Below, piece by piece: positions 40,609-57,024 of a DNA stretch of 64,000 nt. Position numbers and translations under genes: made by a program. The notes under the pieces are model-generated. The model did no database searches and had not been told where the DNA came from. It saw nothing but the letters and a program-made list of their open reading frames with translations. This stretch comes from Hansschlegelia quercus. Its GTDB lineage: Bacteria > Pseudomonadota > Alphaproteobacteria > Rhizobiales > Methylopilaceae. The first letter of the stretch is position 1. Each line of letters opens with the position of its first letter. The stretch covers positions 744,001 to 808,000 of the forward strand of contig NZ_SIUB01000001.1 in the NCBI RefSeq assembly GCF_004310425.1. The letters run 5' to 3'.

Positions 40609-41337
40609 TCAGTGCTGCGCGCCGAGGAACTGCCTGAGCTCAGGCGTTTTCGGCGCGCCGAAGACTTCGGCCGGCGGGCCGATCTCGTGGACGCGGCCCA
40701 TATGCATGAAGACGACGCGCGAGCAGACGTCGCGAGCGAAGCGCATCTCGTGCGTCACCATCAGCAGCGTCATGCCCTCGGCGGCGAGCTCCTTCACCAC
40801 CGCCAGGACCTCCTGCACGAGCTCGGGGTCGAGCGCGGAGGTGACCTCGTCGCAGAGCAGCGCCATCGGCTGCATGGCGAGCGCACGGGCGATCGCGACG
40901 CGCTGCTGCTGGCCGCCAGAGAGCTCGTCGGGATAGGCGTCGAACTTGTGGGCGAGGCCGACGCGCTCCAGCATCTTGCGCGCCATCGCCTCGGCTTCAG
41001 GCTTCGGCGTCTTCTTCACCACCATCTGGCTGAGCATGACGTTCTGCCCGGCCGTCTTGTGCGGGAACAGGTTGAAGCTCTGGAAGATCATGCCGACCTT
41101 CAGGCGCAGCGCCTTGAGGTGGAGCTCATCCGGCGCGAGCTGGGCGCCGGCGACCTGGATCGAGCCGGAGTTGATCGTCTCCAGCCCGTTGATGCAGCGG
41201 AGCAGCGTCGATTTGCCCGAGCCCGACTTGCCGATGATGGCGATGACCTCGCCCGGCTCGACGTTGAGGTCGATGCCCTTCAAGACCTCGTTCGCGCCGA
41301 AGCTCTTGCGCACGTCAGTGATTTCGATGAGCGACAT
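40609..41337 (-). CDS. Polar amino-acid-type ABC transporter ATP-binding protein
   Basis: 242 residues, GlnQ/HisP class. Walker A IIGKSGSGKSTLLRCINGLE, signature DELSGGQQQRVAIARALAMQ, Walker B ALLCDEVTSALDPELVQEVL and H-loop LMVTHEMRFARDV are intact. It overlaps the preceding permease gene by 23 bases and is the last gene of the leftward run that starts at the BMP-type importer. The importer of this class takes up amino acids or other small polar compounds; in this context the cargo may be a ureide or amino acid derivative. Confidence 0.94.
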   Translation of the reverse strand: MSLIEITDVRKSFGANEVLKGIDLNVEPGEVIAIIGKSGSGKSTLLRCINGLETINSGSIQVAGAQLAPDELHLKALRLKVGMIFQSFNLFPHKTAGQNVMLSQMVVKKTPKPEAEAMARKMLERVGLAHKFDAYPDELSGGQQQRVAIARALAMQPMALLCDEVTSALDPELVQEVLAVVKELAAEGMTLLMVTHEMRFARDVCSRVVFMHMGRVHEIGPPAEVFGAPKTPELRQFLGAQH

Positions 41338-41974
41338 TGAGCTTCCTCTCGAGATACTGGCTGGACTTCGACAGCGGGAAGCAGAGGACGAAATAGATCA
41401 GCGCGACATAGCCGTAGACCGTGAACGGCAGAAAGGTGGCGTTGGTGACGATCGTGCCAGCCTTCGACAGCTCGACGAAGCCGATGATCGAGGTCAGCGA
41501 CGTGCCCTTCACCACCTGCACGGAAAAGCCGACGGTCGGCGGTATGGCGATCTTCATCGCCTGCGGCAGGACGACGTAGCGCATCTGCTGCATCCGCCCC
41601 ATGCCGAGGCTGGCGGAGGCCTCCCACTGGCCTTTGGCGATCGACTCCACGCAGCCGCGCCAGATCTCGGCGAGGAAGGCCGCGGTCCACAGGATGAGCG
41701 CGACGCCGGCCGCGAGCCAGGCCGGAACGTTGATCCCGAACAGCGCGAGTCCGAAGAAGGCGAGGAACAGCTGCATCAGCAGCGGCGTGCCCTGGAACAG
41801 CTCGACATAAGCGCCCGCGAACAGCCGCGGCCAGCGCGACCTCGAGATGCGCATGAAGAGCAGGCCGAGCCCGACGATCCCGCCGCCGACAAAGGAGACA
41901 AGCGAGAGCACGACCGTCCAGCGCGCGGCGAGCAGCAGATTGCGGAGAATGTCCCAGTTCGAAAACTCGATCAT
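41315..41974 (-). CDS. Polar amino-acid-type ABC transporter permease (HisM/GlnP class)
   Basis: 219 residues with about five membrane helices. The inner-membrane signature is LAEIWRGCVESIAKGQWEAS and LGMGRMQQMRYVVLPQAMKI, the EAA loop that contacts the ATPase. FQGTPLLMQLFLAFFG is typical of the family. It pairs with the permease at 41985-42656 to form the channel. Ten bases separate the two genes. Confidence 0.93.
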   Translation of the reverse strand: MIEFSNWDILRNLLLAARWTVVLSLVSFVGGGIVGLGLLFMRISRSRWPRLFAGAYVELFQGTPLLMQLFLAFFGLALFGINVPAWLAAGVALILWTAAFLAEIWRGCVESIAKGQWEASASLGMGRMQQMRYVVLPQAMKIAIPPTVGFSVQVVKGTSLTSIIGFVELSKAGTIVTNATFLPFTVYGYVALIYFVLCFPLSKSSQYLERKLNVAHRNH

Positions 41975-41984
41975 CGCGCCGCCC

Positions 41985-42656
41985 TCATCGTCCGCTCCTC
42001 CTGGGGAAGAGGACGAAGCCGACGCCCCTCAGCAGCTGCCGCAGCAGGATCGCCAGCGCGAGATAGATCAGCGTCGCGACGATGTAGCTTTCGAACGCCC
42101 GGAAGGTGCGCGACTGGATGAAGTTCGCGGCGAAGGACAGGTCTTCAGCCGCGATCTGGGAGACCACCGCGGATCCCAGCATCACGATGACGATCTGCGA
42201 CGACAGAGCCGGCCAGATCTTCTGCAGCGCGGGAATGAGCACGACGTAGCGGAAGGTCTCGAACCGCGTCATCCCGAGGCTCCAGCCGGCCTCGAACTGG
42301 CCCTGCCCCGTCGCCTGAATGCCGGCGCGGACGATCTCGCAGCTATAGGCGCCGAGATTGATCACCATGGCGAGCAGCGCCGCCTGGATCTCGCTCATCT
42401 GCACGCCCAGCGACGGCAGGCCGAAGAAGATGAAGAACAGCTGGATCAGGAACGGCGTGTTGCGGATCAGCTCGACATAGGTCGCGACGATCGGCTTGAG
42501 CCATCTCGGCCCGAGGGACCGCGCCCAGGCGCAGGCGACGCCGAGCGAGACGCCGAGCGTCGCGCCGACCAGCGTCAGTTCGGCCGTCACCAGGACGCCC
42601 TTGAGCAGCACGCCCCAATAGTCGGCAAGCCATGAATAGTCGAAGACGTAGCCCAT
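41985..42656 (-). CDS. Polar amino-acid-type ABC transporter permease (HisQ class)
   Basis: 223 residues with membrane helices and the family markers VELIRNTPFLIQLFFIFFGL, YSCEIVRAGIQATGQGQFEA and LGMTRFETFRYVVLIPALQK. It forms a heterodimeric channel with the next gene. The start ATG at 42656 comes 33 bases after the solute-binding protein stop at 42690. Confidence 0.93.
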   Translation of the reverse strand: MGYVFDYSWLADYWGVLLKGVLVTAELTLVGATLGVSLGVACAWARSLGPRWLKPIVATYVELIRNTPFLIQLFFIFFGLPSLGVQMSEIQAALLAMVINLGAYSCEIVRAGIQATGQGQFEAGWSLGMTRFETFRYVVLIPALQKIWPALSSQIVIVMLGSAVVSQIAAEDLSFAANFIQSRTFRAFESYIVATLIYLALAILLRQLLRGVGFVLFPRRSGR

Positions 42657-42689
42657 GGTCCGCGGCCCTCCCCGGTCGTGAAGCCCGGT

Positions 42690-43478
42690 TCAGAGGTCCT
42701 TCGGCAGGTCCGTCTTCAGCCACTTCTGGGCGATGGCGTCGAGCGACCCGTCGGTCTTGGCGGTGGCGATGATGTCGTCGAGCTTCGCCTTAAGGACCGG
42801 CTGATCCTTGCTGAAGCCGATATAGCAGGGCGAATTCTTGATCAGGAACTTGAGCATCGGCTTCTTCGGCGGGTTGCGCGCGATGATCGCCGCCGCCACC
42901 ACGTTGCCGGTCGCGACCACCTGGACCTGGCCTGACAGGAACGCCGAGATCGTGCCGTTATTATCCTCGTAGCGTTTGATGGTCGCGTCGGCGGGCGCGA
43001 CCTTGGTGAGTTCGAGATCCTCCACCGCGCCGCGGGTGACGCCGATGGTCTTGCCGGAAAGGTCCTCCGCCTTCGACACCGCGACATTGTCCGGCGCGAA
43101 CACGCCGTTGAAGAACGGCGCGTAGGCCGTCGAGAAATCGATGACCTTCTCACGGTCCGGATTCTTGCCGAGGCTCGAGATGACGAGGTCGACCTTGCCG
43201 GTCTGGAGATAGGGGATGCGGTTCGCGCTGGTGACGGGCGTCAGTTCCAGCTTCACGCCCAGCTTCTCGGCGATCAGCGTCGCCATATCGATGTCGTAGC
43301 CCTGCGGCGCCATATCGAGCCCGACGCTGCCGAAGGGCGGGAAGTCCTGCGGCACCGCAACTTTGAGCGTCCCGCGCGACATGATGTCGGGGAGCTCTGC
43401 GCGAGCATCGTTCGCGACGCCGCCGCCAGTCAGAGCGAGAACAAAAGCGAGCACGGCCCGGCGAGTGGTGAGGCGCAT
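42690..43478 (-). CDS. Periplasmic solute-binding protein, polar amino acid type
   Basis: 262 residues with a signal peptide (TTRRAVLAFVLALTGGGVAN, cleavage near ARA-ELP). The mature type II binding fold shows GTLKVAVPQDFPPFGSVG, GYDIDMATLIAEKLGVKLEL, GKVDLVISSLGKNPDREKVI and KTIGVTRGAVEDLEL. It feeds the two permeases and ATPase downstream. The 152-base gap upstream (43479-43630) could hold its own promoter, so this importer may be a separate unit within the long leftward run. The ligand is unknown. Confidence 0.92.
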   Translation of the reverse strand: MRLTTRRAVLAFVLALTGGGVANDARAELPDIMSRGTLKVAVPQDFPPFGSVGLDMAPQGYDIDMATLIAEKLGVKLELTPVTSANRIPYLQTGKVDLVISSLGKNPDREKVIDFSTAYAPFFNGVFAPDNVAVSKAEDLSGKTIGVTRGAVEDLELTKVAPADATIKRYEDNNGTISAFLSGQVQVVATGNVVAAAIIARNPPKKPMLKFLIKNSPCYIGFSKDQPVLKAKLDDIIATAKTDGSLDAIAQKWLKTDLPKDL

Positions 43479-43630
43479 GGATCTGGTCTCCCGGCCCGAC
43501 TATCGATCCGGGCGACGGCGACGATCAAGCAATGGGCATACCAGCCGAATAGTGATCAGAAGCGCGCAAGCGCGACTACGCCGAGCGCCTCATTCTTGAG
43601 CTGCCGCATAGAAGATGGACAGCGCCGGTC

Positions 43631-44269
43631 TCAACGTCCCGGCGCGGCCGGGAACACGCCGGACATCACCGAAAAGCCCGGCACGCGCTTCACGCGGTCC
43701 ATCCAGCGGCGGATCGCGGGGTAATCCTGCCGCGAAACGCCGCCCTCCTCCGACAGCGCAACCGCCGGGAAACAGGCGATTTCGGCGATCGTCGGGCGCT
43801 CGGCTGGGCACAGCCAGCCGCGGCCCTGCCGTTCGCCAAACCACAGATGCTCGTCGAGGATGCGGAACAGGCGATGCGCCTCGGCCCTCGCCGCGTCGGC
43901 GTCGACGGCCTCGAAGAAGCCGTCGGCCCGCCGTGCGGCGCCGGCGGAGGCGTCGAGGTCGACCGCGAAGGACAGCCACTGCGCCACCTCCGCCGCAAGC
44001 CGCGGCTCGCGCGGCGACCAATGGTCGGACGTGTCGTAACGACCCGCGAGGTAGATCAGGATCGCGTGCGGCTCGTGCAGCGTGAAGCCGTCGTCCTCCA
44101 GAACGGGGATACGGCCAAGCGGGCTCAGAGTGCGGAACGCGGGCGTCTTGTGCTCGGCGCCCGGATAGTAGTCGACCGGGACGACCCGCCATTTGAGGCC
44201 GAGCAGCCCCAACATCAGCCGGACCTTGTAGCACTCGGCCGAGAGCTCGTAGTCGTGCAGCGCGATCAT
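43631..44269 (-). CDS. Glutathione S-transferase-like protein, candidate NdmE-type subunit
   Basis: 212 residues with the N-terminal thioredoxin-like domain (ALHDYELSAECYKVRLMLGL; cis-Pro in GRIPVLEDDGFTLHEPHAIL) and the C-terminal helical domain (RPTIAEIACFPAVALSEEGG, with the N-capping Thr-x-Ala-Asp-like motif). Ordinary GSTs detoxify electrophiles. Here the gene directly follows a Rieske-reductase fusion and a Rieske-less oxygenase. In caffeine-degrading Pseudomonas, NdmE is a GST-like protein that holds together NdmC (Rieske-less oxygenase) and NdmD (Rieske-reductase); the same three-part set is seen here, so a structural role is likely (inference by analogy). Confidence 0.85.
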   Translation of the reverse strand: MIALHDYELSAECYKVRLMLGLLGLKWRVVPVDYYPGAEHKTPAFRTLSPLGRIPVLEDDGFTLHEPHAILIYLAGRYDTSDHWSPREPRLAAEVAQWLSFAVDLDASAGAARRADGFFEAVDADAARAEAHRLFRILDEHLWFGERQGRGWLCPAERPTIAEIACFPAVALSEEGGVSRQDYPAIRRWMDRVKRVPGFSVMSGVFPAAPGR

Positions 44270-44279
44270 CGGAGCGCCT

Positions 44280-45995
44280 TCAGACGTCGAGCGTGATGCG
44301 CGCCGAGCGCGCGCGGGATACGCAGGTCATGATGCGGCGGCCCTCCCGCTTCTCGGCGTCGCTGAGATAGACGTCCTGATGGTCGGGCTCGCCCTCGAGC
44401 ACCGTCGCCTCGCACGTCCCGCAGGCGCCCTGCTCGCAGGAGGACGGCAGGTCGACGCCGTTGTCGCGCAGCACCTCCAAGATCGTGCGGCCGGCGGGCA
44501 CCGTCAGCGTCAGCGCGGAGCGGGCGAGCGCAATCTCGAAGGACGAGCCGGCGTCGACCGCGCGCTCGTTCTTGAAATACTCGAAATGCACCGCGGCTTC
44601 CGGCCAGCCGGCTTCGGCGGCGACGCGGCGCGCGGTCTCGAGCATCGGCGTTGGGCCGCAGAGATAGACATGCGCCCCGACCGGCCGCTGGCCGAGCAGC
44701 GTCCGCAAGCGCGCTTCGGTCTCGACGGGATCGAGGCCGAGATGCGGGGTGAAGCGCGATTTAAGCGCGCCGAGCCTGTCGGCGAAGGCGATATGCGCCT
44801 CGTCGCGCGCGAAGCAGTGGAAAGCGATGGCTGAGCCGCTGTGATCGAGCGCCTGCGCCATCGCGATGAGCGGCGTGACGCCGACGCCGCCGGCGATGAA
44901 GATCGTGAGGTTCGCGTCGCGGCGCAGCGGAAAGTTGTTGCGCGGCTCCGAGATCGCGAGCAGGTCGCCCTCGCGCACCGTCTCGTGCAGCGTCTGCGAC
45001 CCGCCGCGGGAGGCGGGATCACGCTTAACGCCGATGACGTAGGATCCGGTCTCGCCGGGCGCGTTGACCAGCGAATAGGGCCGGATCAGCCCGTTCGGCA
45101 GGTGAACGTCGATATGCCCGCCGGGCTGGAAGGTGGGCAGGCCCCCGGAAACCGCCGCGAGTTCGAAGCCCGCGACGTCCGCCCCCGCCGCCCATTTGCG
45201 CGATACCGCGACGCTCAGCGAGGCGCGCCGGCCGGCCTTGAGGAGGCCCGGCATCTCGGCGAGTTCGGCGGAGACCGGCGCATAGACCGGCGCGAGCGGT
45301 TCCGGCGCGGGCGCCGCGAGCGCCTCGGCCTCGATCACGTCGCGCAGCGCCTTCAGCCGCTCATTGTGCAGGCGGAGCGTCGCAATGCTGTCCGGCGATC
45401 GGTCGCCCGCCAAGACGCCGCGGATCACGCAGCGGCCGGAATCGACCGGCTGGACGAAGAACGCTGCGCGCGTTCCCTCAGGCGTCGTCAGCGTCACCGA
45501 AAGGCCGTCTCCCTCTTGGCCGCCATCATCGCCATGCCTGCGCAACGCCGCAACCGCCATCGCGGCCGGCGCGTTCGCCGCCATCTCGCGCAGCGTCAGC
45601 AGGTCGCCGCTGTCGAGCTCCGGCCGCGCCGGCGGCCCCCGCTCCTCGCCAAGCGTCGTCCAGATCAACCCGTAGCGCTCAACCACGGGATAGGTGCGGT
45701 TGGTGATGGTCCGCGCCGGCGCGTCGGCGGGATGGGCGGGAATGTAGGTGCAGCCCGCCGTTCGGTTGGCGTAGCGCCAGCCGTGATACTGGCAGACGAG
45801 CTCGCGCCCGTCGTTCAGCCCGATCGAGAGCCTGACGCCGCGGTGCAGGCAGCGGTTCTCCCAGACGTTGACGTGGCCGTCGTCGGCTCGCCAGGCTGCG
45901 AATTCCTGGCCCAGCAGCTGGCCGTGAAACACGTGGCGGAACGGCAGATCGCCGCTTGCGGCGATCGGGCTCCAGATGTCGTTCGTCAGGCTCAT
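44280..45995 (-). CDS. Rieske domain-flavin reductase-ferredoxin fusion, NdmD-like
   Basis: 571 residues, three electron-transfer modules. The N-terminal Rieske domain has complete ligands Cys49-x-His51 (NRCLHRG) and Cys68-x2-His71 (VCQYHGW). After a linker, residues from about 260 form the FMN/NADH reductase: GGHIDVHLPNGLIRPYSLVN, FIAGGVGVTPLIAMAQAL, HVYLCGPTPMLETARR. A plant-type [2Fe-2S] domain ends the protein (CEQGACGTCEATV and a last Cys in MTCVSRA). A Rieske domain at the front of a phthalate dioxygenase-type reductase is unusual; NdmD of the caffeine N-demethylase system has this order. Its ATG overlaps the stop of the Rieske-less oxygenase by four bases. Confidence 0.93.
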   Translation of the reverse strand: MSLTNDIWSPIAASGDLPFRHVFHGQLLGQEFAAWRADDGHVNVWENRCLHRGVRLSIGLNDGRELVCQYHGWRYANRTAGCTYIPAHPADAPARTITNRTYPVVERYGLIWTTLGEERGPPARPELDSGDLLTLREMAANAPAAMAVAALRRHGDDGGQEGDGLSVTLTTPEGTRAAFFVQPVDSGRCVIRGVLAGDRSPDSIATLRLHNERLKALRDVIEAEALAAPAPEPLAPVYAPVSAELAEMPGLLKAGRRASLSVAVSRKWAAGADVAGFELAAVSGGLPTFQPGGHIDVHLPNGLIRPYSLVNAPGETGSYVIGVKRDPASRGGSQTLHETVREGDLLAISEPRNNFPLRRDANLTIFIAGGVGVTPLIAMAQALDHSGSAIAFHCFARDEAHIAFADRLGALKSRFTPHLGLDPVETEARLRTLLGQRPVGAHVYLCGPTPMLETARRVAAEAGWPEAAVHFEYFKNERAVDAGSSFEIALARSALTLTVPAGRTILEVLRDNGVDLPSSCEQGACGTCEATVLEGEPDHQDVYLSDAEKREGRRIMTCVSRARSARITLDV

Positions 45996-46897
45996 GCGGC
46001 GGCGGGGATCACGCCATAGGTCACGCCTTTGGCGGACAGCCAGCGGCGATAGGCGATCGCGGATTTGTCGGCGCGGATCGGCGTTTCCGCGCGGGGGTCG
46101 AGCGGCAGGCGCTTCGGGAACTGGTTCTCGAGGATCGGCTTGTCTTGCCCGAAGACCATCAGCTGGAAACGGCGGATGAAGGTGTCGTCGTTCTGATCGT
46201 CGAGGATCGACAGCATCATGTGCGCCCGGATGCGCTCCTGTCCGACCGGCTGGAGGAAGATCGCGATCACGTCCTGACGGTTCGCGTCAAGCGGGCTCGA
46301 CTTGTAGAGCACCGAGCAGAACGGGTGCGGCACCCGGTAGACGTACTCGACCTCCATGCCGCCCTTGGCGACGGTCGAGGCCATCGGCTGAAAAAAGCGG
46401 CAGCGCGTCGCCAGGACCTCGTCACGCTCGGCCGAGGTCTCGACGTCGTATTCCTTCACTTCCGTATGCGGCTGCTCGCCCAGAATGCCGGTGTGGACAT
46501 ACGGGAAATGGCCCATGTCGAGGAAGTTCTCGATCGCCCGCGGCGCGGACACCGCGACGCCGATCGACGCCGCGGCGACGTTGCGCCGGTCGGGCTCGGC
46601 ATATTCGGGAATGGCGAAAATTTCTTCGGGCGGCGTCCCGAGCGACGTCCAGAGATAGCCGTAAGCGACAAGGCTCGGCAGCGCGTCGGCTGGACGCGTC
46701 GACGGCGCCGCGTCGCCTGCCCGCAGCTCCGGCCGCGCCCGCCAGACGAAGGGCTCGCCGTCCGCCACTTTGGCGAAGTTCACAGGCTCGTCGAGCAGCA
46801 CGGTCGCGGAGACCTTGCCCGGCGGGATCTCGCCGATTGCGGCGATCGGGTGCCACAGGTTCAGCGTCACGGGATCTGGGGACGCAAATCCGCTCAT
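45992..46897 (-). CDS. Rieske-type oxygenase catalytic subunit lacking the Rieske cluster, NdmC-like
   Basis: 301 residues. The catalytic domain carries the mononuclear iron motif NFLDMGHFPYVH (Asn124, Asp127, His130, His135) of Rieske non-heme iron oxygenases. The N-terminal 90 residues keep the outer strands of a Rieske domain (LWHPIAAIGEIPPGKVSATV, VAYGYLWTSLG) but lack all Cys-x-His and Cys-x2-His ligands, which should lie between residues 50 and 80. The missing cluster is supplied in trans by the Rieske-reductase gene that overlaps its 3' end. NdmC, the N7-demethylase of Pseudomonas putida CBB5, shows this same loss. Likely reaction: oxidative N-demethylation of a small heterocycle or ureide. 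Confidence 0.9.
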   Translation of the reverse strand: MSGFASPDPVTLNLWHPIAAIGEIPPGKVSATVLLDEPVNFAKVADGEPFVWRARPELRAGDAAPSTRPADALPSLVAYGYLWTSLGTPPEEIFAIPEYAEPDRRNVAAASIGVAVSAPRAIENFLDMGHFPYVHTGILGEQPHTEVKEYDVETSAERDEVLATRCRFFQPMASTVAKGGMEVEYVYRVPHPFCSVLYKSSPLDANRQDVIAIFLQPVGQERIRAHMMLSILDDQNDDTFIRRFQLMVFGQDKPILENQFPKRLPLDPRAETPIRADKSAIAYRRWLSAKGVTYGVIPAAA

Positions 46898-47008
46898 CGC
46901 GGCGCTCCTCGATTTATCGTTCGAATGCGATCAGGCTCGCACATTCAATGGCTTGCGGGAAGGCCGGAGGTCGCCGGGGGAGGTCTGACACGCCGCCGCG
47001 AGGAGAGA

Positions 47009-47674
47009 TCAACCCGCCATCGCCGCTATCGCCGCGTCCGACTGCGCGACCCAGCCGAAGATGCCGCCCTGCGCCTTGATCATCTTCAGCCCGTATTCGT
47101 GGAAGTCCGGAAAGTAAGACGCGCAGCAATCCGCCAGCACGACGCAGCGATAGCCGCGGTCGTTCGCCTCCCGGACCGTGGTGTTGACGCAGACCTCGGT
47201 CGTCACGCCGCAGACCAGCAGCGTGTCGATCCCGCGGTTCTTCAGCATCAGCTCCAGATCGGTCTGGTAGAACGCCCCCTTCCCCGGCTTGTCGATCACC
47301 GGCTCGCCGGCGAGCGGGCTGAGCTCCGCGATGATGTCGTGCCCGGCCTCGCCGCGGATCAGGATGCGGCCCATGGGTCCCGGCGCACCGATGCGGGCGG
47401 AGGGTTCGCCGCGCTCCACCTTGGCCTTCGGCGCGTCGGCCATGTCGGGCCTGTGACCCTCGCGGGTATGCACGACGAGCATCCCCGCCCCCCGCGCCGC
47501 ATCGAGCGTGGCCTTGCAGGGACCGATGGCGGCCTTCAGCAGGGAGACGTCGTTCCCCAGCGTCTCGCCGAAGCCGCCCGGCTCGATGAAATCGCGCTGC
47601 ATGTCGATGATGAGGAGCGCGGTGCTCGCGAGGTCCACATCGAGCGGCTGCGGTTCGGCCTCGATCGTCGGCAT
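47009..47674 (-). CDS. Isochorismatase-fold cysteine hydrolase, candidate ureide amidase
   Basis: 221 residues. The catalytic triad of the family is present: Asp24 ([10 protein letters not shown]), Lys129 ([10 protein letters not shown]) and Cys162 ([12 protein letters not shown]). It is a paralogue of the BiuH-like protein at 52983-53684, sharing [17 protein letters not shown] and [11 protein letters not shown], but is shorter at the N-terminus and differs around residues 75-100, the region that shapes the pocket. Bacteria that degrade triuret use a BiuH-related enzyme (TrtA) beside biuret and allophanate hydrolases, so this second copy may be a triuret- or substituted-biuret hydrolase. Ureidoacrylate hydrolase (RutB) is a less likely alternative given the neighbours. 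Confidence 0.82.
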
Positions 47675-47683
47675 GTCCTGTCC

Positions 47684-48067
47684 CTACCCCTCGTCGATGA
47701 CGCTGACATGCGCCGAGACCACCCTCCACCCGTCCGGAAAACGCACCCAGGTCTGGCTCTGGCGGCCGATCTTCCCCGGCGCGCCGTCTCGCCGGAACAG
47801 CGTGTTCGCCACCGCCATATCGCGGCCGTAGGCCGTGATCTGCGTGCGCTCCAGCGTGCGGTCGAGGCCCTTCGGCGAACGGCCGCGGCGGAAGGCGCGG
47901 ATCTCGTCCATCCCGTAGAGGTTCTCGGTCGCGCCGTAGCGCAGGGTGCGCGGGTCGTCGTTGAACAGCCCCTCGAGCGTCTCGACATCGTTGCCGGTGA
48001 GCGCCGCCTCGTAGGATCTGAAGGCCGCCGTAACTTCGGCCAGAACTTCGGGATCGTCGATCGTCAT
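47684..48067 (-). CDS. atzH: HpxZ/AtzH-like NTF2-fold protein
   Basis: 127 residues from ATG 48067, which overlaps the amidase stop (TCAT at 48064-48067). It has the DUF3225 pattern: DPEVLAEVTAAFRSYEAALT, DPRTLRYGATENLYGMDEIR and GRQSQTWVRFPDGWRVVSAH. In Pseudomonas sp. ADP the homologue AtzH hydrolyses and decarboxylates 1,3-dicarboxyurea to allophanate; in Klebsiella HpxZ belongs to oxalurate breakdown. The adjacent atzF, atzG and atzE genes favour the former. The exact substrate here is unproven. Confidence 0.83.
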   Translation of the reverse strand: MTIDDPEVLAEVTAAFRSYEAALTGNDVETLEGLFNDDPRTLRYGATENLYGMDEIRAFRRGRSPKGLDRTLERTQITAYGRDMAVANTLFRRDGAPGKIGRQSQTWVRFPDGWRVVSAHVSVIDEG

Positions 48068-49392
48068 GAGGCTGCTCCCATATCCCGAACGAACGCCACG
48101 CCCGCTTTCTCCAGCGCGCGCGCCACGCGGAGCGCAGCGGCCTCCTTCCAGGGCGCGGCGATGATCTGCACGCCGAGCGGCAGGCCGCTGTCCAGGAAGA
48201 TCGGCGCGCAAACGACCGGCAGGCCGATGAACGAGATCGGCTGGGTGAACACGCCGACGTTCGGCCTCAACGGCACGGTCTCGCCGTTCAGCATGAGCGT
48301 GGTCTGGCCGAGCTTCGGCGCGCGGCAGGGCGTCGCCGGGGCCAGCAGCACGTCGACCTCCTCGAACAGCTTCGCGGCGGCTTCCGCGAACCAGCGGCGG
48401 AAGCGGTGGGCGCGGGCGACGAAGGCGGCGGGAATGGTCGCGCCGGCGATCATCCGGTCGCGCACCGCCGGGTCGAAATCCTCCGCACGCGTCCTCAGCC
48501 GGTCGAGATGGAGCGCCGCGCCCTCGCTCGCCGTGATGACGTAGGCGGCCGCCCGCGCCCGCGCGGCCTCGGGCAGTTCCACCACGCGCTCGGCGCCAAG
48601 AAATTCAGCGACGCGCGCCACAGCCTCGAAGCAGTCGGCGTCGCCGCCGTTGGCGAAATAGCCGCCGAGCGTCGCGATGCGAAGGTCCGCAAAACCGTCT
48701 TCGAGCCTTGGCGAGGCCGGCTCGGCCGGGCGTTCGGTCGCATAAGGATCGTCCGAATCCGGCCCCTGCATCGCGTCGTAGGCGGCGGCCAGCAGTCCGA
48801 CCGAGTTCGCGAGCGGCCCGAGATGGTCGAGGCTGTGGACGAAGGGGAACGTCCCTGCCCGGCTCAGGCGCCCGAAGGTCGGCTTCAGCCCAAAAGTCCC
48901 GCAGAGCGCGGAGGGCACGCGGATCGAGCCGTTGGTGTCGGAGGCGAGCGCCAGCGGCACGAGGCCCGCGCCGACCGCCGCGCCGGAGCCGCCCGACGAG
49001 CCGCCAGACATGCGGGTGGCGTCGTGCGGATTGCGCGACGGGCCGTCATGGACGTTTTCGCCGGTGAAGTCGTAGGCGTATTCGCCCATGTTGAGCGCGC
49101 CGACGAGCACCGCGCCGGCGGCCTCCAGCCGGCGGATCAGCGCCGCGTCCCGGCGCGCGGGGGCAAGCTCCCGGTTGATCTTCGAACCCGCGCGGGTGGC
49201 GAGGCCCTCAACGTCGAACAAGTTTTTCACCGCGAAGGGCACGCCCGCGAGCGGCCCGGCGACTCCGGACGCGTCGACCGTCGCCGCCTTGGCGCGCGCC
49301 CGCTCCCCCGTCACATCGGTGAAGGCGCCGAGCGCAGGCTCGGCCTTGCCGATGCGGCCAAGCGCAGCCTCGACGGCCGCCGTCGCGCTCAT
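48064..49392 (-). CDS. atzE: Amidase-signature hydrolase, AtzE/HpxY family
   Basis: 442 residues of the amidase signature family with the Ser-cisSer-Lys triad: Lys in GVPFAVKNLFDVEGLATRAG, serines in RMSGGSSGGSGAAVGAGL and ASDTNGSIRVPSALCGTFGL. AtzE hydrolyses 1-carboxybiuret and needs the small partner AtzG; that partner is encoded immediately upstream with a four-base overlap (49389-49392). The stop overlaps atzH. Glutamyl-tRNA amidotransferase subunit A is a related fold, but absence of gatB/gatC and the atzG/atzH partners exclude it. Confidence 0.87.
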   Translation of the reverse strand: MSATAAVEAALGRIGKAEPALGAFTDVTGERARAKAATVDASGVAGPLAGVPFAVKNLFDVEGLATRAGSKINRELAPARRDAALIRRLEAAGAVLVGALNMGEYAYDFTGENVHDGPSRNPHDATRMSGGSSGGSGAAVGAGLVPLALASDTNGSIRVPSALCGTFGLKPTFGRLSRAGTFPFVHSLDHLGPLANSVGLLAAAYDAMQGPDSDDPYATERPAEPASPRLEDGFADLRIATLGGYFANGGDADCFEAVARVAEFLGAERVVELPEAARARAAAYVITASEGAALHLDRLRTRAEDFDPAVRDRMIAGATIPAAFVARAHRFRRWFAEAAAKLFEEVDVLLAPATPCRAPKLGQTTLMLNGETVPLRPNVGVFTQPISFIGLPVVCAPIFLDSGLPLGVQIIAAPWKEAAALRVARALEKAGVAFVRDMGAAS

Positions 49393-49580
49393 GGCCGGAA
49401 CACCGAGGCGGGGTCGAGTTCGTCGTCGAGCGGGAAGTCCGCGACCAGCCGGCCGGCCTGCAGCGTCGCTTTCAGATGCGCGAGCACGGACGGGCGCCAG
49501 TCCGGCGCCACGCTGAGCCCGAGCGCCGCCGTCGCGGCGTCGAGATGGGCTTCGAGCGTTTCGTCGGACAGCAGGTTCAT
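49389..49580 (-). CDS. atzG: AtzG-like small subunit (DUF4089)
   Basis: 63 residues with the family pattern LEAHLDAATAALGLSVAPDW, then VLAHLKATLQAGRLVADFPL and the C-terminal DELDPASVFRP. AtzG is a vestigial GatC-like protein that wraps AtzE and is needed for its stability. Both ends overlap neighbours by four bases (atzF stop at 49577, atzE start at 49392), so production is tightly coupled at 1:1 with AtzE. Confidence 0.88.
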   Translation of the reverse strand: MNLLSDETLEAHLDAATAALGLSVAPDWRPSVLAHLKATLQAGRLVADFPLDDELDPASVFRP

Positions 49581-51388
49581 GCGGCCTTCGTCGCCCCGAT
49601 GAAGGCGCGCCAGCCGCCGTAGCGCGTGATCTCCTCCGCGCCGACGATTCCTTCCGGCTCGACGAGAAAGCCGAACGGCGTCGTGCCGTCCGCGAGCCTC
49701 AACGTGCCGAAGCCGAGCGGCGACGGAATGGCTGAGACGAACGGGCCGATCGCGGATTTGGGCAGCGCCCAGACCTCGGTCGCGATCGCGGCGCCCTCGC
49801 CTGTCCGCACGCGGAGCAGCCCGGGCCGGGCGACCTTGCCGGGGAGCGAGAAGAGTTTGTAGGAGCGCTCGGTGTCGACCGCGCGCAGGAACCGGCCGCC
49901 GAGCTTCGTCACCTCGCCGTTCAGCGCCATTCCCGAGAGATGCGCGCCGACGACGACCAGCTCCATCTCGTCCGGGCCGGCGGCGGCGGCCCGCGCGGGC
50001 GCGGGCGACGGCGCGCGGCCGGTCGCGCCAACGGGGACTGCCCCGGCGATGTGCAGCGCCTCGCCGATCGCCGCAATCCTGAAGTCATGGCCTGCGGGCG
50101 CGATCAGCGTGACGCCGGCGGGCTTGCCGTCGGCCCGCGGCCGGCCGGGAACGGCAAGCGCGCAGAGGTCGAGCAGGTTGACGAAATTGGTGTAGGTCCC
50201 GAATTCGCTGTTGAGCGCGATCGGCTCCGCCTCGATCGCCGCGACCGTGTGCGGCCGCGGGTAGGTCGGGACCAGCATCGCGTCGGCCGACGCCCAAACG
50301 CCGCCGAGCGCGCGCTTGAGCTCGGCCAGTTTGTAAAGGGCCCCGAACGCGTTCGCGGCATCGAACCGGACGGCGCCCTGGATGATCTTGCGCGTCACGG
50401 GGTGAAGCGCCTCCGGCTTCTCCTCGATGAAGCTGCGGATCGCCTCGTAGCGCTCGGCCACGAACGGGCCGTCATAGAGCAGGCTCGCGACCGCGAAGAA
50501 GGGTTCGAGGTCGATCTCGGTGGTCTGCGCGCCGAGCCCCTTCAGATCGGCGATCGTCGCGTCGAAGGCGGTCTCCGCCGCGGCGTCGCCCGCGAACCGC
50601 CGGCTCGCGGCGTCGGGAATCAGCACGCGGAAGGACGGCGGCAGCGGCGCGATCGAGGGTTTGGCGAAGTCGCGCGAAAACGCGTCTGACGCGCAATAGC
50701 CCGCCATGGCCTGGAACACGGAATAGGCGTCGTCGACCGAATTCGCGAACACCGAGACGCAATCGAGCGTCCGGCAGGCGGGCAGCACACCCTCGGTCGG
50801 AACGGCGCCGACGGTGGGTTTCAGTCCGACGATGTTGTTGAGCCCAGCCGGCACGCGGCCCGAGCCCGCCGTGTCGGTGCCGAGCGAAAACGCGACCAGC
50901 CCGCGCGCGACCGAGACCGCCGAGCCCGAGCTCGACCCGCCCGGCGCGAGTGCCGGATCGACGGCGTTGAGCGGCGCGGGATAGGGCGTGCGGAGGCCGA
51001 CGAGGCCGGTCGCGAACTGGTCGAGATTGGTCTTGCCGACAACGATCGCGCCGGCCGCCTTCAACCGGGAGACTACCTCGGCGTCTCTCTCGGGCTGATA
51101 GGCGAAGTCCGGGCAGGCGGCGGTGGTCGGCAGCCCCGCAACGTCGATGTTGTCCTTCACCGCGAAGGGAACCCCCCAGAGCGCGCGGCCGTCCGTCGAC
51201 GAGCCCAGCGCGCGCGCTTCCGCGATCGCGGCGTCGCGGTCGGCGAGCGCGATGAAGATGCCGGGATCCCCAGCCGCCTCAATGCGGGCGAACGCTTCCT
51301 CGACCACCGCCAACGGCGATAGCCCGGCGGCATAGGCCGATCTCAGCGAGGCCAGATCGAAAGCGAGGTCGGCGAGAGCGGTCGTCAT
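49577..51388 (-). CDS. atzF: Allophanate hydrolase
   Basis: 603 residues: an N-terminal amidase domain and the C-terminal domain found only in allophanate hydrolases. The amidase has Lys78 (GVPFAVKDNIDVAGLPTTAA), serines in LAPGGSSSGSAVSVARGL and TDTAGSGRVPAGLNNIVGLK. The C-terminal domain (about 455-600) shows VVVGAHLSGMALNGEVTKLG, ATEVWALPKSAIGPFVSAIP and FGFLVEPEGIVGAEEITRYG. It cleaves allophanate to ammonia and CO2, the last step after biuret hydrolase. It is not fused to urea carboxylase, so it serves biuret/cyanurate-type rather than urea carboxylase metabolism. Sixty-eight bases separate it from the ABC ATPase upstream. Confidence 0.93.
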   Translation of the reverse strand: MTTALADLAFDLASLRSAYAAGLSPLAVVEEAFARIEAAGDPGIFIALADRDAAIAEARALGSSTDGRALWGVPFAVKDNIDVAGLPTTAACPDFAYQPERDAEVVSRLKAAGAIVVGKTNLDQFATGLVGLRTPYPAPLNAVDPALAPGGSSSGSAVSVARGLVAFSLGTDTAGSGRVPAGLNNIVGLKPTVGAVPTEGVLPACRTLDCVSVFANSVDDAYSVFQAMAGYCASDAFSRDFAKPSIAPLPPSFRVLIPDAASRRFAGDAAAETAFDATIADLKGLGAQTTEIDLEPFFAVASLLYDGPFVAERYEAIRSFIEEKPEALHPVTRKIIQGAVRFDAANAFGALYKLAELKRALGGVWASADAMLVPTYPRPHTVAAIEAEPIALNSEFGTYTNFVNLLDLCALAVPGRPRADGKPAGVTLIAPAGHDFRIAAIGEALHIAGAVPVGATGRAPSPAPARAAAAGPDEMELVVVGAHLSGMALNGEVTKLGGRFLRAVDTERSYKLFSLPGKVARPGLLRVRTGEGAAIATEVWALPKSAIGPFVSAIPSPLGFGTLRLADGTTPFGFLVEPEGIVGAEEITRYGGWRAFIGATKAA

Positions 51389-51456: not shown

Positions 51457-52986
51457 CTAGTGTTTGCCCGCCATATGCTCGCCGATGACGTGGAGGTCGG
51501 CCTGCGCGATCGGCGTTTCGTAGACGAGCTGACCGTCCGACATCACGAGGATGCGGTCGGAGAGCTCCAGCAGTTCGTCGAGATCCTCCGACATCAGCAG
51601 CACCGCCGCGCCGCCGTTCCGCGCCTTCATGATGCGCGCGCGGATTTCTGCGACCGCCGCGAAATCAAGCCCGAAGCAAGGGTTGGAGACGATCAGCAGG
51701 TCGACCGCGCCGCTCAGCTCCCGCGCCAGCACCGCCCGCTGCACGTTGCCGCCCGAGAGCGACTGGATGGGCGAGGAGAGCGACGCCGTCTTCACCTTGA
51801 ACTGCGCGATCAGAGAGGTCGCGTAGTCGCGGATCGCGCGCGCGCTGATCCAGGAGGCCGGCTTGCCGTCCTTGTCGAGATCGAAGGTCCGGAAGGCGAT
51901 GTTTTCGGCCACCGTCATCTTCGGCGCGCAGGCGTTCCTCAACGGCTCTTCCGGGATGAACCTGACGTTGAGCTTGCGGGACTGCTCCCTGGTCGCCTCG
52001 TAGGACGCGTTCTTCACGCGGATCTCGCCCGCCTCGCGCGCCCGCTGGCCGGCCAGAACCTCTAGAAACTCCTTCTGGCCGTTGCCGGAGACGCCGGCTA
52101 CGCCGACGATCTCGCCGGCCTTGACCTTCAGCCCGTCGATCTCGATCGACTTCAATCCCGAGCGGTCCTTGGCCTTGACCGCGTTCACCTCAAGCACGGA
52201 GACGGCGTCGGCGGGCGTCGGCGCCCGCTGGTCGAGCGCCGCGATCGCTTGGTCACCGATCATCATCGCCGCCATCTTGCGCCGGTCGAGATTGGCCACG
52301 CGGCCGCGGCCGGTCAGCTTGCCCTTGCGCAGCACCGAGACGTCGTCGGCGAACGCCGTGACCTCGTGGAACTTGTGGCTGATCATCAGCACCGTCAGCT
52401 CGCCGCGCCGGGTCATGCCGCGGACGAGGCCCAGCATCTCCTCGGCCTCGCCCGGGGTCAGCACCGAAGTCGGCTCGTCGAGCACGAGGAAGCGGCGGCC
52501 GAGATAGAGCTGCTTGACGATCTCGAGCTTCTGCTTCTCGCCGGCCGCGAGCGCGCTGACGGGCTGCTCGAGCGGGATCTTGAACGGCATCCGCTCCATG
52601 AAGCTCTTGAGGTCGCGGCGCTCCTTGCCCCAGTCGATGACGGCCGGCGCGTTCTCGCGCGAGATCACGAGGTTCTCCTCGCCGGTGAGCGAGGGCACCA
52701 GCGTGAAGTGCTGGTAGACCATGCCGAGGCCGAGCGCGCCCGCGTCCTTCGGGCTCGCGATCACGGCCTCGCGGCCGTTGACGACCATGTCGCCCGATGT
52801 CGGCGTGTAGAAGCCCATCATGCATTTCACGAGCGTCGACTTGCCCGCGCCGTTTTCGCCGAGCAGCGCGTGGAACGAGCCCGCCGGGACCTTCACCGTG
52901 ACGTCGTCGAGCGCGGTGAAGCCACCGAAGCGCATCGTCATGCCGATGGCCTCGACGCCGACGGCCGGAACGGTCTGCGCGTTCAT
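51457..52986 (-). CDS. Nucleoside/nucleobase-type ABC transporter ATPase with two ABC domains
   Basis: 509 residues, tandem ABC cassettes as in NupO/YufO and simple-sugar importers. The first has Walker [21 protein letters not shown], signature [20 protein letters not shown] and Walker [21 protein letters not shown]. The second has a degenerate Walker A ([20 protein letters not shown]) and signature [20 protein letters not shown], the usual state of this family. It starts within the biuH stop (ATGA, 52983-52986). It powers import by the two permeases encoded upstream. Confidence 0.93.
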
Positions 52987-53684
52987 GGCAGCGCCGCCAA
53001 AAGGGCTTCGGACGTCGAGACCGCGCCGAACACGCCGCCCTGCATCTTGATCATCTTGATCGCGGCCTCGTGGTTGCCGCGGTCGGTCGCCGCGCAGCAA
53101 TCCTCCAGCATCACGCATTCGAAGCCGCGGTCGTTCGCTTCGCGCATCGTGGTGTGGACGCAGACGTCGGTGGTGACGCCGGTCAGAACGAGGTTGTCGA
53201 TCCGGCGCTGCTTCAGGATCAGCTCGAGGTCGGTCGCGACGAAGGATCCCTTGCCGGGCTTGTCGATGATCGGCTCGCCCTCGATCGGGTAGAGATCGGG
53301 GATGATGTCCCAGCCGGGCTCGCCGCGCACCAGGATGCGCCCGCAGGGGCCGGGGTCGCCGATGCCAGGGCCGAACTGGCGCGAACGCCAGCGCTTGTTC
53401 TCAGGCAGGTCCGCGAGGTCCGGCCGGTGGCCTTCGCGCGTGTGAAAGACGTGGTAGCCCTTGGCGCGCATCGCCGCGAGCACGCGGCCGATCGGCTCGA
53501 TCGGCGCCCGCGTCAGCGACAGGTCGTAGCCCATCCCGTCGACATAGCCGCCGGGGGCGCAGAAATCCTTCTGCATGTCGATGACGATGAGCGCCGTGTT
53601 CTCCGGCCTGAGGTCGCCATTATAAGGCCACGGATAGGGGTCGGCTTCGATGAAGCGCTGTTCGACGCGGGCGTGGGCGTTCAT
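52983..53684 (-). CDS. biuH: Biuret hydrolase (cysteine hydrolase)
   Basis: 233 residues. Sequence and numbering fit the biuret hydrolase of Rhizobium leguminosarum as I recall it: catalytic Asp36 ([11 protein letters not shown]), Lys142 ([10 protein letters not shown]) and Cys175 ([12 protein letters not shown]), together with [20 protein letters not shown] and [20 protein letters not shown]. It hydrolyses biuret to allophanate and ammonia; allophanate hydrolase is encoded two genes downstream. The gene lies between permease and ATPase genes of the importer, which couples uptake to hydrolysis. The ATG at 53684 is followed 20 residues later by the first conserved block. Confidence 0.92.
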
Positions 53685-53701
53685 CCCTGAGGCGTCCTTC
53701 T

Positions 53702-54625
53702 CTAGCGGGTGATCGACAGCTCGCCGGGCGCGCCGGCGAGCGCACGGCCGGGCGACGAGGCTGCGATCATGACGATGAGGGTCAGCACGTAAGGCGCGGC
53801 GTAGAACAAATAGTAGCCTTGCGTGACGCCGACCGACTGGAGCGCGGGCCCAAGCGCGCCGGCCCCGCCGAACAGCAGCGCCGCGGCGAAGCAGCCCAGT
53901 GGGTTCCAGCGCGCGAAGATCACGAGCGCAACCGCCATCAAGCCCTGGCCGGAGGAGAGACGCTCGTTCCAGCTGCCGGGATAATACAGCGAGAGATAGG
54001 CTCCGCCGATCGCCGCCAGCGCCCCGCCCGCGGCGGTCGCGAACAGCCGCACCGTGTTGGGCGACAGTCCCATGGCGCGGGCGGCGTCGGCGCTGTCGCC
54101 GACCACGCGCACGATCAGCCCGATCTTGGTGTTCTTGAACGCCCACCACAGCGCGAGCGCGAGCGCCGCGCCGACGAGGAACAGGACGTTGACGTTGAGC
54201 GCGGCGCGCACCTGCGGCAGCGACGACCAGTCGCCGAGCGGGATCGCCGGCAGGTTCGGGGCGGAGGGCTGGATGTACGGCTTGCCGAAGAAGAAGGCGA
54301 GGCCCATGCCGAACAGCATCAGCGCGATGCCGACGGCGATGTCGTTGACCTTGGGGAACGAGCAGATCCAGCCATGCAGCAGGCCGAAGCCGGCCCCCGC
54401 GACCATCGCGGCGAGCACCCCGATCCACGGCGAGCCGGTCTCGACCGCGATCGCGTAGGCCGCCATCGCGCCGAACACCAGCGTGCCTTCGAGGCCGAGA
54501 TTGATGCGGCCGGAGCGCTCGGTGATCGTCTCGCCGAGGCTGACGAAGATGAACGGGGTGGAGACCCGGATCGCGCCGCCGAGAATCGCGAGCGGCACGC
54601 CCCAGAGGCCGATGTCGCCTTCCAT
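53702..54625 (-). CDS. Nucleoside-type ABC transporter permease (second subunit)
   Basis: 307 residues from ATG 54625, which overlaps the previous permease stop by one base. Eight or nine membrane helices; family landmarks are [20 protein letters not shown] near residue 30, [20 protein letters not shown], and [20 protein letters not shown]. It matches the NupQ/YufQ class that works with BMP-type binding proteins. Longer readings of this frame into the upstream gene are not coding. Confidence 0.92.
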
Positions 54626-55743
54626 CAGGGCGCCCTCTTCCAACGGTCGGGATCGAAGCACTTGAAGCGGCCGTAGAGCGTCTCGCTCATCAGCACGACG
54701 ATGAACAGCATGCCCTGCAGCACGAGGATGGTCGCGTCGGGCAGGCCCATGCGGCGCTGGATCAGGCCGCCGGCCGCCGCGATCCCGCCGAGCAGGAAGG
54801 CGACGGGGACCACGCCGAGCGGGTTCTGCCGGGCGAGGAAGGCGACCAGAATGCCGGCATAGCCATAGCCCGCAGCGAGCGAAGCGTTGGCCGAGCCCTG
54901 CACGGCCGCCACCTCGAACATGCCCGCGAGGCCCGCGAGCGCGCCGGAAAGGGCGCAGAAGCCGACGATCAGCGGACCGACGGCGAGGCCCTGGATCTGC
55001 GCGGCGCGAACATTGCCGCCGGCGACGCGGGCGGCGAAGCCCCAGCGGGTCTTCTCGATCAGCAGCCAGCACGCCACACAGGCGAGCAGCGCGACAACGA
55101 GGCCCCAATGCACGTCCATGCCGGGGATCGGTCCAACACGCGCAGCCTCGGTCAGCGGATGCGTCGAGGGCTTATTGAGCGATGCCGGATCGCGCAGCGG
55201 ACCTTCGACCAGATGGTTCATGAGCGCGATGGCGATATAGGCCATCAGCAGGCTCGAAATGGTCTCGTTGACCGCTCGGTAGTGCCGTAGCGCGCCGACT
55301 GCGCCGATCCAGAGCCCGCCGGCGACCATGCCGGCCGCGGCCATCGCCGCGAGGACGATTACGGACGGCGCATTACCGAGCCAATGTCCGAAGGCTGCGG
55401 CCGCGACGCCGCCGAGCACGATCGCGCCCTCCCCGCCGATCACCGTCAGGCCGAGCCGCGCCGGAAGGGCGACGCAGAGCGCGGCGAAGATCAGCGGCGT
55501 CGCGCGCAGCAGAGCGTTCTGGATCGAGAACCAGCTGCCGAAGCCGCCACGCCACATCAGTTCTAGGAACGTCGATGGCGACTTGCCGAGCAACAGCAGG
55601 AAGACGCTGAACAGCGCCATGCCGGCGAGCAATGCGCCGAGCGGGATGACGACCCCTTCCGCCCGCCGGGCGAGCCACGCGAGCGCCAGCGGCGCTCGCG
55701 GCGGGGAGAGCACGGCGGATGCCGGCGCTGCGATGTCTGTCAT
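54625..55743 (-). CDS. Nucleoside-type ABC transporter permease (first subunit)
   Basis: 372 residues, NupP/YufP class. Landmarks are [60 protein letters not shown] and [20 protein letters not shown]. It forms the channel with the next permease. It begins 27 bases after the solute-binding protein stop. Confidence 0.92.
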
Positions 55744-55770
55744 GGCCGGCGCCCTCCGGAACCGGGACTC

Positions 55771-56895: not shown

Positions 56896-57024
56896 GGGCG
56901 TGGCCTTCCGGTTCGGGCAGGTCGGCTGGCGGCCGACATGAAGCTGCGGGGCGAGCAAGTCCGTTCAGGGACGCAAGGTTGGCGCCGCGTTGACGGCTAA
57001 CTCGATCTCCCTGACGCCAAAAGG

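What the first reader, a model, noticed from the sequence alone, without database searches (positions are those of the whole stretch)
43631..46897. Split Rieske N-demethylase set of NdmC-NdmD-NdmE type in an alphaproteobacterium
Seen: an oxygenase with the mononuclear iron motif (Asn124, Asp127, His130, His135) but no Rieske ligands; a four-base-overlapping gene that puts a complete Rieske domain (Cys49, His51, Cys68, His71) in front of a flavin/NADH/[2Fe-2S] reductase; then a GST-like gene. Known: in caffeine-degrading Pseudomonas putida CBB5, NdmC lacks its Rieske cluster, NdmD supplies it and the GST-like NdmE assembles them to N7-demethylate 7-methylxanthine. Inference: the three genes here form the same kind of complex. 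Its setting beside biuret/allophanate genes instead of xanthine genes suggests a different N-methylated substrate.
Basis: partly seen in the sequence, partly recalled or inferred. Interest (0 to 1): 0.88.

Follow-up and report, generated by a model that had tools for sequence, protein, structure and literature searches.

The report
Split Rieske purine N-demethylase-like gene trio

Summary
On the minus strand lie a Rieske-less mononuclear-iron oxygenase (RO, 45992-46897), a Rieske-FMN/NADH-[2Fe-2S] reductase overlapping it by 4 bases (44280-45995) and a GST-like gene (43631-44269). The trio is widespread: 78 of 89 related loci hold all three, and order and strand agree in 75 of 75 testable. It has NdmCDE architecture; homologues in Sinorhizobium and Mesorhizobium were already in print (function unknown). 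Two corrections. First, the RO is not in the NdmC branch: caffeine-cluster NdmC-position proteins group with a second, upstream RO paralogue (split supported 96/96). Second, the biuret setting does not argue for a biuret-like substrate. That operon (TrtA-BiuH-AtzF with its own BMP transporter) exists without the trio in same-genus genomes, two of which have it inside a purine locus; 0 of 89 relatives of the trio have it nearby. Relatives instead carry formaldehyde-detoxification genes (FrmA, 13 of 89) or guanine deaminase (11 of 89), often right behind the GST; 0 of 39 comparison stretches do; 65 of 89 relatives have neither. The window's closest relatives are guanine-deaminase-linked. Best reading: an N-methylpurine demethylase, plausibly for methylguanine or methylxanthine. 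Substrate unproven.

The parts
45992..46897 (-). Rieske-less oxygenase (RO), 301 aa, mononuclear Fe(II) motif N124/D127/H130/H135; catalytic subunit
   Evidence: AlphaFold model pLDDT 85 matches GxtA/SxtT, then NdmA
44280..45995 (-). Rieske [2Fe-2S] + flavin/NADH + plant-type [2Fe-2S] reductase, 571 aa; presumed to supply the missing Rieske cluster
43631..44269 (-). GST-like protein, 212 aa, NdmE position; presumed assembly subunit
47009..47674 (-). TrtA-like triuret hydrolase (context, last gene of the triuret operon in same-genus genomes)
   Evidence: best PDB match 6XIX; all six TrtA-type positions
47684..48064 (-). HpxZ/AtzH-like protein (context)
   Evidence: NF033625 200.7 bits, cut-off 135
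48064..49392 (-). AtzE-family amidohydrolase (context)
   Evidence: NF006631, TIGR02715 over cut-off
49389..49580 (-). AtzG-like small ORF, 63 aa (context)
   Evidence: ORF position between AtzE and AtzF; matched at the same place in same-genus genomes; name recalled
49577..51388 (-). AtzF allophanate hydrolase (context)
   Evidence: TIGR02713 over cut-off
52983..53687 (-). BiuH biuret hydrolase (context)
   Evidence: NF050097 417 bits, cut-off 370; PDB 6AZO
51457..52989 (-). ATPase of the triuret operon's own BMP-type ABC transporter (context)
   Evidence: 82-85% identical counterparts in same-genus triuret operons
53702..56958 (-). permeases and substrate-binding protein of the same BMP-type transporter (context)
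57260..58276 (-). formamidase (context)
   Evidence: NF009803 578 bits, cut-off 406
40609..43478 (-). polar amino-acid type ABC transporter downstream of the GST; no link to the trio seen elsewhere (context)
   Evidence: substrate-binding protein; four-gene unit in G215; the other three names by similarity, by eye

Best explanation
The three genes encode a split Rieske monooxygenase complex that N-demethylates a purine-type base. NADH reduces the flavin and plant-type cluster of the reductase, electrons pass to the reductase's own N-terminal Rieske cluster and from there, in trans, to the mononuclear iron of the Rieske-less oxygenase, presumably through the bridging Asp127 (role recalled from the Rieske oxygenase family); the GST-like protein holds the parts together. 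O2 then hydroxylates an N-methyl group, which leaves as formaldehyde. Most likely substrates are mono-N-methylated purines (N-methylguanine, e.g. 7-methylguanine, or a methylxanthine), whose demethylated product would enter the guanine deaminase / xanthine-dehydrogenase-like pathway that this genome encodes 0.55 Mb away on the same contig. Shown: genes, motifs, co-conservation, branch, gene neighbours in relatives. Inferred: complex formation, electron path, demethylation chemistry, substrate.
For: Architecture and motifs; conserved trio, 75 of 75 same order and strand; RO-reductase and RO-GST distances correlate (r 0.94, 0.84 over 76 sets including the window's). S-(hydroxymethyl)glutathione dehydrogenase FrmA lies near 13 of 89 trios, 58-119 bp behind the GST match in 12 of the 13; S-formylglutathione hydrolase lies near 8 of 89. 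Guanine deaminase (45% identity or more) lies near 11 of 89, 49-103 bp behind the GST match in 6 of the 11. None of 39 comparison stretches (16 arbitrary, 23 around AtzF/TrtA genes) held FrmA, FghA or guaD by the same test. The window RO is sister (100/99) to two Mesorhizobium ROs whose GST is followed by guaD. In the same-genus genome G034 a two-RO trio sits beside guaD, a BMP transporter, OHCU decarboxylase and xanthine-dehydrogenase-like genes. This genome has guanine deaminase, 8-oxoguanine deaminase, OHCU decarboxylase and allantoicase over their cut-offs in one purine locus. Solved relatives of the RO include the caffeine N-demethylase NdmA.
Against: No FrmA, FghA, guaD or GntR cluster member was found in window 38-62 kb; the trio sits behind a triuret operon. 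The RO is only 43-47% identical to NdmC-position proteins and not in their branch. In solved structures the oxygenase's nearest relatives are saxitoxin-pathway enzymes (GxtA/SxtT), ahead of NdmA. 65 of 89 relatives have neither FrmA nor guaD nearby, the Devosia sets among them. FrmA and guaD neighbours come in good part from related rhizobia; the guaD/single-RO versus FrmA/multi-RO contrast (10/11 vs 12/13) rests on only 1 supported independent pair. In guaD-linked sets FrmA is absent from the flanks. The xdhB-family matches in this genome are all under the cut-off. Three Acidimicrobiia loci have the RO without reductase or GST nearby.
Confidence: 0.66

Rival explanations
1. One reading: the complex demethylates an N-methylated biuret, triuret or urea, and the product enters the adjacent TrtA-BiuH-AtzF operon.
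For: The RO starts 111 bp behind trtA on the same strand; a consensus scan found no sigma-70 promoter in 43300-47200 and no terminator-like site between the two genes. In G229 a split-RO cassette of another branch (RO, GST, 8-oxoguanine-deaminase-like gene, BMP transporter) also lies about 7.6 kb from an AtzF-TrtA operon.
Against: 0 of 89 relatives of the trio have AtzF, AtzE, TrtA or BiuH in the fetched flanks. The triuret operon exists without the trio in same-genus G215 and G193, with its own transporter (RO absent there). Of 27 sampled order genomes with both RO and AtzF only the window's and G229 have them within 10 kb of each other; many of the others have them on different contigs, counted as not near (my comparison). 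The RO has its own ribosome-binding site (by eye).
Confidence: 0.09
2. A purine ring hydroxylase rather than a demethylase: a split counterpart of HpxD-type Rieske enzymes, acting on xanthine, guanine or urate.
For: Purine-gene context; HpxD-annotated plasmid proteins match the RO at 26-28%; the nearest solved structures, GxtA and SxtT, are ring hydroxylases (reaction recalled); no xdhB-family match is over its cut-off here.
Against: Formaldehyde-handling genes directly behind the trio in relatives of the same RO branch; xanthine-dehydrogenase-like genes stand beside the trio in G034, so a second hydroxylase seems not needed there.
Confidence: 0.13
3. N-demethylation of another N-methyl heterocycle, e.g. 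an N-methylpyridine such as trigonelline (a legume compound; recalled), feeding nicotinate degradation.
For: A run that reads like a nicotinate-degradation cluster (my reading of the annotation) follows guaD in Mesorhizobium AR02; 5 of 89 loci carry a related small [2Fe-2S] subunit gene and 3 of 89 a large subunit by one of two queries (query loci included).
Against: The monooxygenase and isomerase genes of that run were found in no locus but the query locus itself (1 of 89), and there guaD lies between it and the trio.
Confidence: 0.06

Closest known systems
NdmCDE of Pseudomonas putida CBB5 (7-methylxanthine N7-demethylase) and the caffeine-plasmid cluster of Paraburkholderia caffeinilytica CF1
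   Same: Rieske-less oxygenase + Rieske-fused reductase + GST-like subunit; in CF1 adjacent and in the same order. PMC10380055 (passages) describes NdmC without Rieske cluster, NdmD with it, NdmE structural, a 3:3:3 complex, and complete demethylation genes on a 174 kb CF1 plasmid.
   Different: RO in another branch than the CF1, KF715 and Klebsiella NdmC-position proteins; identities to CF1 43% / 40% / 56%; the RO query found no second match in this genome at E 0.001, so no NdmA/NdmB-like oxygenase by that test.
ndmCDE homologues of Sinorhizobium and Mesorhizobium (function unknown)
   Same: The window's trio belongs here: RO 77% to Mesorhizobium sp. AR02, 70% to S. meliloti; PMC4408171 (passages) reports such clusters from a BLAST search published in 2013.
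   Different: The window's copy sits behind a triuret operon; no GntR, guaD, FrmA or FghA cluster member in window 38-62 kb, and the BMP transporter there belongs to the triuret operon.
SxtT / GxtA (saxitoxin-pathway Rieske oxygenases) and NdmA/NdmB
   Same: Closest solved structures by sequence and fold.
   Different: They carry their own Rieske cluster (recalled); the window RO aligns to SxtT 4-33 and 100-333 only.
Triuret pathway TrtA-BiuH-AtzF with BMP nucleoside-type transporter
   Same: Neighbouring operon; a like set is described in nitrifiers as downstream purine degradation (PMC12625717, passages); TrtA itself in PMC7948467 (outline and passages).
   Different: The passages I saw mention no such trio (PMC7948467 has no occurrence of 'Rieske'); here the operon is only a neighbour.

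Membership tests
NdmCDE-type split Rieske N-demethylase | catalytic subunit without Rieske cluster but with mononuclear iron site | tested here: met
   96 of 98 cluster members lack the Rieske motif, 94 of 98 have the iron motif
NdmCDE-type split Rieske N-demethylase | Rieske domain fused to a flavin/NADH/[2Fe-2S] reductase encoded next to it | tested here: met
   Rieske motif in 68 of 68 relatives
NdmCDE-type split Rieske N-demethylase | adjacent GST-like third subunit, nearer to NdmE-position proteins than to other GSTs | tested here: met
   56/47/44% to three NdmE-position proteins against 31-33% to the other GST matches of this genome and 31% to 3m3m
NdmC (orthologue) | RO falls in the NdmC branch | tested here: not met
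   96/96 split places CF1, KF715 and Klebsiella NdmC-position proteins with the upstream RO paralogue, window RO on the other side (85 of 124 rows; odd and redundant rows left out); CBB5 NdmC itself not in hand; tree unrooted
NdmCDE-type split Rieske N-demethylase | stable complex of the three proteins | not testable with these tools
   only single chains can be modelled; distance correlations 0.84-0.94 are indirect
NdmCDE-type split Rieske N-demethylase | N-demethylation with formaldehyde release | not testable with these tools
   only context: FrmA near 13 of 89, FghA near 8 of 89
NdmCDE (caffeine pathway) | activity on 7-methylxanthine | not testable with these tools
   needs enzyme assay
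TrtA triuret hydrolase (neighbour, 47009-47674) | TrtA-type residues F35, N41, A134, E160, Y187, I205 | tested here: met
   positions from PMC7948467 read off the alignment to 6XIX; 6 of 6

The most novel reading that the evidence does not exclude
The window's RO branch, spread from rhizobia to Devosia, Granulosicoccus and Actinobacteria, is a general salvage enzyme for N-methylguanine from RNA turnover: it demethylates the base to guanine, which the adjacent or resident guanine deaminase takes on. The caffeine enzyme NdmCDE would then be one specialised offshoot of an older, plant- and soil-wide methylpurine-recycling system.
Probability: 0.33. Interest if true: 0.76.

Novelty: new member of a known kind. 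Interest (0 to 1): 0.5.

Why it matters
A capped genome scan already gave 578 matching stretches that encode relatives of this oxygenase, only 4 of 89 inspected loci have an NdmA-like oxygenase nearby, and a 2015 review lists the function of the non-caffeine homologues as unknown. The neighbour evidence gathered here gives a concrete, cheap test: methylguanine and methylxanthine demethylation by the single-RO, guaD-linked sets. If right, it names a step by which soil and plant-associated bacteria recover methylated bases, and places the caffeine enzyme in a larger family.

Tried and rejected
Rejected: the BMP-type transporter at 51-57 kb as part of the trio's system. BMP transporters stand beside 49 of 89 relatives, which first looked like a match, but the window's copy is 82-93% identical to the one inside triuret operons of same-genus genomes and only 34-37% to the one beside the trio in G034. 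Rejected: the polar amino-acid ABC transporter (40609-43478) as partner: the best matches of its substrate-binding protein in the order sample lie on other contigs than RO genes or in genomes without RO, and it stands as a four-gene unit without the trio in G215. Rejected as proof: the Fisher test p = 9e-5 for guaD/single RO versus FrmA/multiple RO, because only 1 supported (4 in all) independent pairs exist. Tested and negative: a general link of triuret operons to purine genes outside the genus - 0 of 24 loci at preset cut-offs (L158 and L166 carry weaker matches), 0 of 16 arbitrary stretches. Class-wide, RO is in 8 of 376 genomes (E 1e-30) and TrtA/BiuH-type hydrolases in 45 of 376 (E 1e-55); both in 3, adjacent only in the window's. 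Loss of the glutathione-binding Ser as a mark of a dead GST was considered (site recalled): position 67 is Ser in 29 of 78, Ala in 44 and Pro in the window, so no family-wide loss. The ternary complex could not be modelled with the tools. The ORF clustering includes antisense artefacts, so neighbour counts are taken from tblastn. Rows dropped: for the tree, 85 of 124 rows were kept (odd rows and near-duplicates left out); for the guaD count a 31% match in L075.
Full report
OBSERVATION. The three ORFs are on the minus strand at 45992-46897, 44280-45995 and 43631-44269. The first encodes a 301-residue oxygenase with N124-x2-D127-x2-H130-x4-H135, only two cysteines and no CxH/CxxH; Pfam gives VanA_C over its cut-off and KshA_C just below, no Rieske domain. 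phmmer aligns it to SxtT residues 4-33 and 100-333, so the stretch that carries the Rieske ligands in SxtT is missing (that the ligands lie there is recalled). The second has a Rieske domain with C49/H51/C68/H71, an NAD-binding reductase module and a plant-type 2Fe-2S domain. The third is GST-like. RO and reductase overlap by four bases. A GAGGAG stretch just upstream of the RO start looks like its own ribosome-binding site (by eye). The AlphaFold model of the RO (33-row alignment of window and fetched-locus proteins, mean pLDDT 85) matches GxtA/SxtT best (query TM about 0.76, rmsd 5-6) and then NdmA and NdmB, over most of the chain, and the reductase's Rieske part aligns to SxtT 12-135. The two proteins therefore overlap on the Rieske domain frame: a gutted domain in the RO and a whole one on the reductase, which fits duplication and decay rather than a clean cut (inference).

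CO-CONSERVATION. The set is therefore tilted towards close relatives. By tblastn 78 of 89 hold RO, reductase and GST (in L037 and L039 the reductase query meets a stand-alone Rieske protein), 4 RO and reductase, 7 RO only; several of the last lie at contig ends, but three Acidimicrobiia loci (L095, L099, L109) seem to lack the partners locally. Where all three pass the length filter, order and strand agree in 75 of 75. Distances correlate across 76 sets: RO-reductase 0.94, RO-GST 0.84, as expected for co-inherited genes. Within sampled genomes the RO occurs in 49 of 297 of the order, 8 of 376 of the class and 2 of 13 of the genus.

WHICH BRANCH. An 85-row tree divides the ROs by a 96/96 supported branch. 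On one side stand the NdmC-position proteins of the CF1 caffeine plasmid, P. putida KF715 and a Klebsiella plasmid, the stand-alone-Rieske type, and the second paralogue (RO-b) of multi-RO operons. On the other side stand the window's RO, sister (100/99) to Mesorhizobium AR02 and M. loti CJ3sym, most other loci, and a small third type from three-RO operons. In the 28 multi-RO loci with a reductase and an RO-b (L035 set aside, its second match being a Rieske-bearing paralogue), the RO next to the reductase is never RO-b (branches). The tree is unrooted, and CBB5 NdmC was not in hand; the review names Klebsiella among the nearest homologues (PMC4408171, passages), which makes the proxies reasonable. 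So the window's RO works like NdmC but is a paralogue by this test.

WHAT THE NEIGHBOURS SAY. FrmA (TIGR02818, over cut-off for the query protein) is near 13 of 89 trios and 58-119 bp behind the GST match in 12 of the 13; FghA is near 8 of 89; guanine deaminase at 45% identity or more is near 11 of 89 and 49-103 bp behind the GST match in 6 of them. None of 39 comparison stretches held any of the three. FrmA and FghA remove formaldehyde (recalled), which N-demethylation by NdmA-type enzymes makes (PMC10380055, passages). A BMP-type transporter is near 49 of 89 and a GntR regulator near 31 of 89. 65 of 89 loci have neither FrmA nor guaD, among them the Devosia sets.

THE BIURET SETTING. Upstream of the RO lies a complete triuret/biuret operon: BiuH (52983), AtzF, an AtzG-like ORF, AtzE, HpxZ/AtzH and a TrtA-like hydrolase at 47009-47674, which has all six TrtA-type positions named in PMC7948467, with its own BMP-type transporter. 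The same operon, 59-93% identical gene by gene, is in three of six same-genus stretches I fetched (G034, G215, G193); in the other three only AtzF of the operon matched well, one of these reaching a contig end. It ends at TrtA without the trio. In G215 and G193 it lies between xanthine permease plus 8-oxoguanine deaminase on one side and formamidase, a xanthine-dehydrogenase-like FAD subunit gene, OHCU decarboxylase, a purine-type BMP transporter and guanine deaminase on the other; in G034 the order is triuret operon, guaD, BMP, OHCU decarboxylase, xanthine-dehydrogenase-like genes, then a two-RO trio (families of the query proteins, where the FAD subunit had no family match, its name resting on its neighbour's sub-cut-off xdhB match). 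In the window's genome the purine part is at C7:222-239 kb and triuret operon plus trio at C7:787-802 kb. So in these genomes triuret genes lie in a purine locus, and in one of them the trio does too. Which arrangement is older cannot be said. Outside the genus the link is weak: 0 of 24 TrtA/AtzF loci at preset cut-offs. No relative of the trio has triuret or biuret genes in its flanks, 0 of 89. Of 27 order genomes that hold both RO and AtzF, two have them within 10 kb, the window's and G229; different contigs count as not near (my comparison of the tables).

MECHANISM AND SUBSTRATE. Shown: motifs, conserved trio, branch, neighbours. Inferred from the characterised NdmCDE (PMC10380055, PMC4408171, passages): NADH to flavin to plant-type cluster to the reductase's Rieske cluster, then in trans to the RO iron; the GST-like protein as assembly factor. 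FrmA/FghA and guaD neighbours make a formaldehyde-releasing demethylation of a methylpurine the best reading; single RO and the guaD-linked sister clade suggest one methyl group on guanine or xanthine. The contrast of single-RO/guaD and multi-RO/FrmA sets (10 of 11 and 12 of 13) is suggestive only, since the tree gives 1 supported independent pair.

NOVELTY. NdmCDE-like clusters in Sinorhizobium and Mesorhizobium are already in print with unknown function. Library searches listed no paper that I recognised, from titles, abstract starts and the passages read, as assigning them a substrate, describing the two-branch split, or linking them to guanine deaminase or the triuret operon; this is a partial library, and the 2013 and 2021 NdmCDE papers themselves were not seen. 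I file the finding as a new member of a known kind, with an open and now testable substrate.

guaD directly behind the GST is 6 of 11, not 7; the class-wide hydrolase count covers BiuH as well as TrtA; the statement on which RO is next to the reductase now rests on a count.

Noticed in passing
L141, L142, L145, L146, L164, L165 (G034, G193, G215): In three same-genus genomes the triuret/biuret operon lies inside or beside a purine-degradation locus (8-oxoguanine deaminase and xanthine permease in two; OHCU decarboxylase, xanthine-dehydrogenase-like gene and guanine deaminase in all three), which would fit triuret arising from uric acid.
   Followed up: partly
L039:9333-11484 and L037:5182-6476: Rhizobium leguminosarum and R. 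tumorigenes encode a stand-alone Rieske protein with the Rieske-less RO and GST and no fused reductase in the fetched stretch: another way of splitting this enzyme.
   Followed up: partly
L053, L058, L061, L064: Ensifer/Rhizobium operons with three Rieske-less oxygenases, a BMP transporter and FrmA; possibly for poly-methylated purines.
   Followed up: partly
L158 (G229:C3:408000-427900): A split-RO cassette of another branch with an 8-oxoguanine-deaminase-like gene and BMP transporter lies about 7.6 kb from an AtzF-TrtA operon.
   Followed up: partly
L031:16951-24903: A run that reads like nicotinate degradation follows the trio and guaD in Mesorhizobium AR02; related small [2Fe-2S] subunit genes near 5 of 89 trios.
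   Followed up: partly
7660-12705: Amidohydrolase plus molybdenum hydroxylase gene cluster, no family over its curated cut-off; could be another heterocycle pathway.
   Followed up: no
38242-38991: ORF whose C-terminal half looks by eye like a tyrosine recombinase fragment, about 5 kb downstream of the trio; not tested.
   Followed up: no
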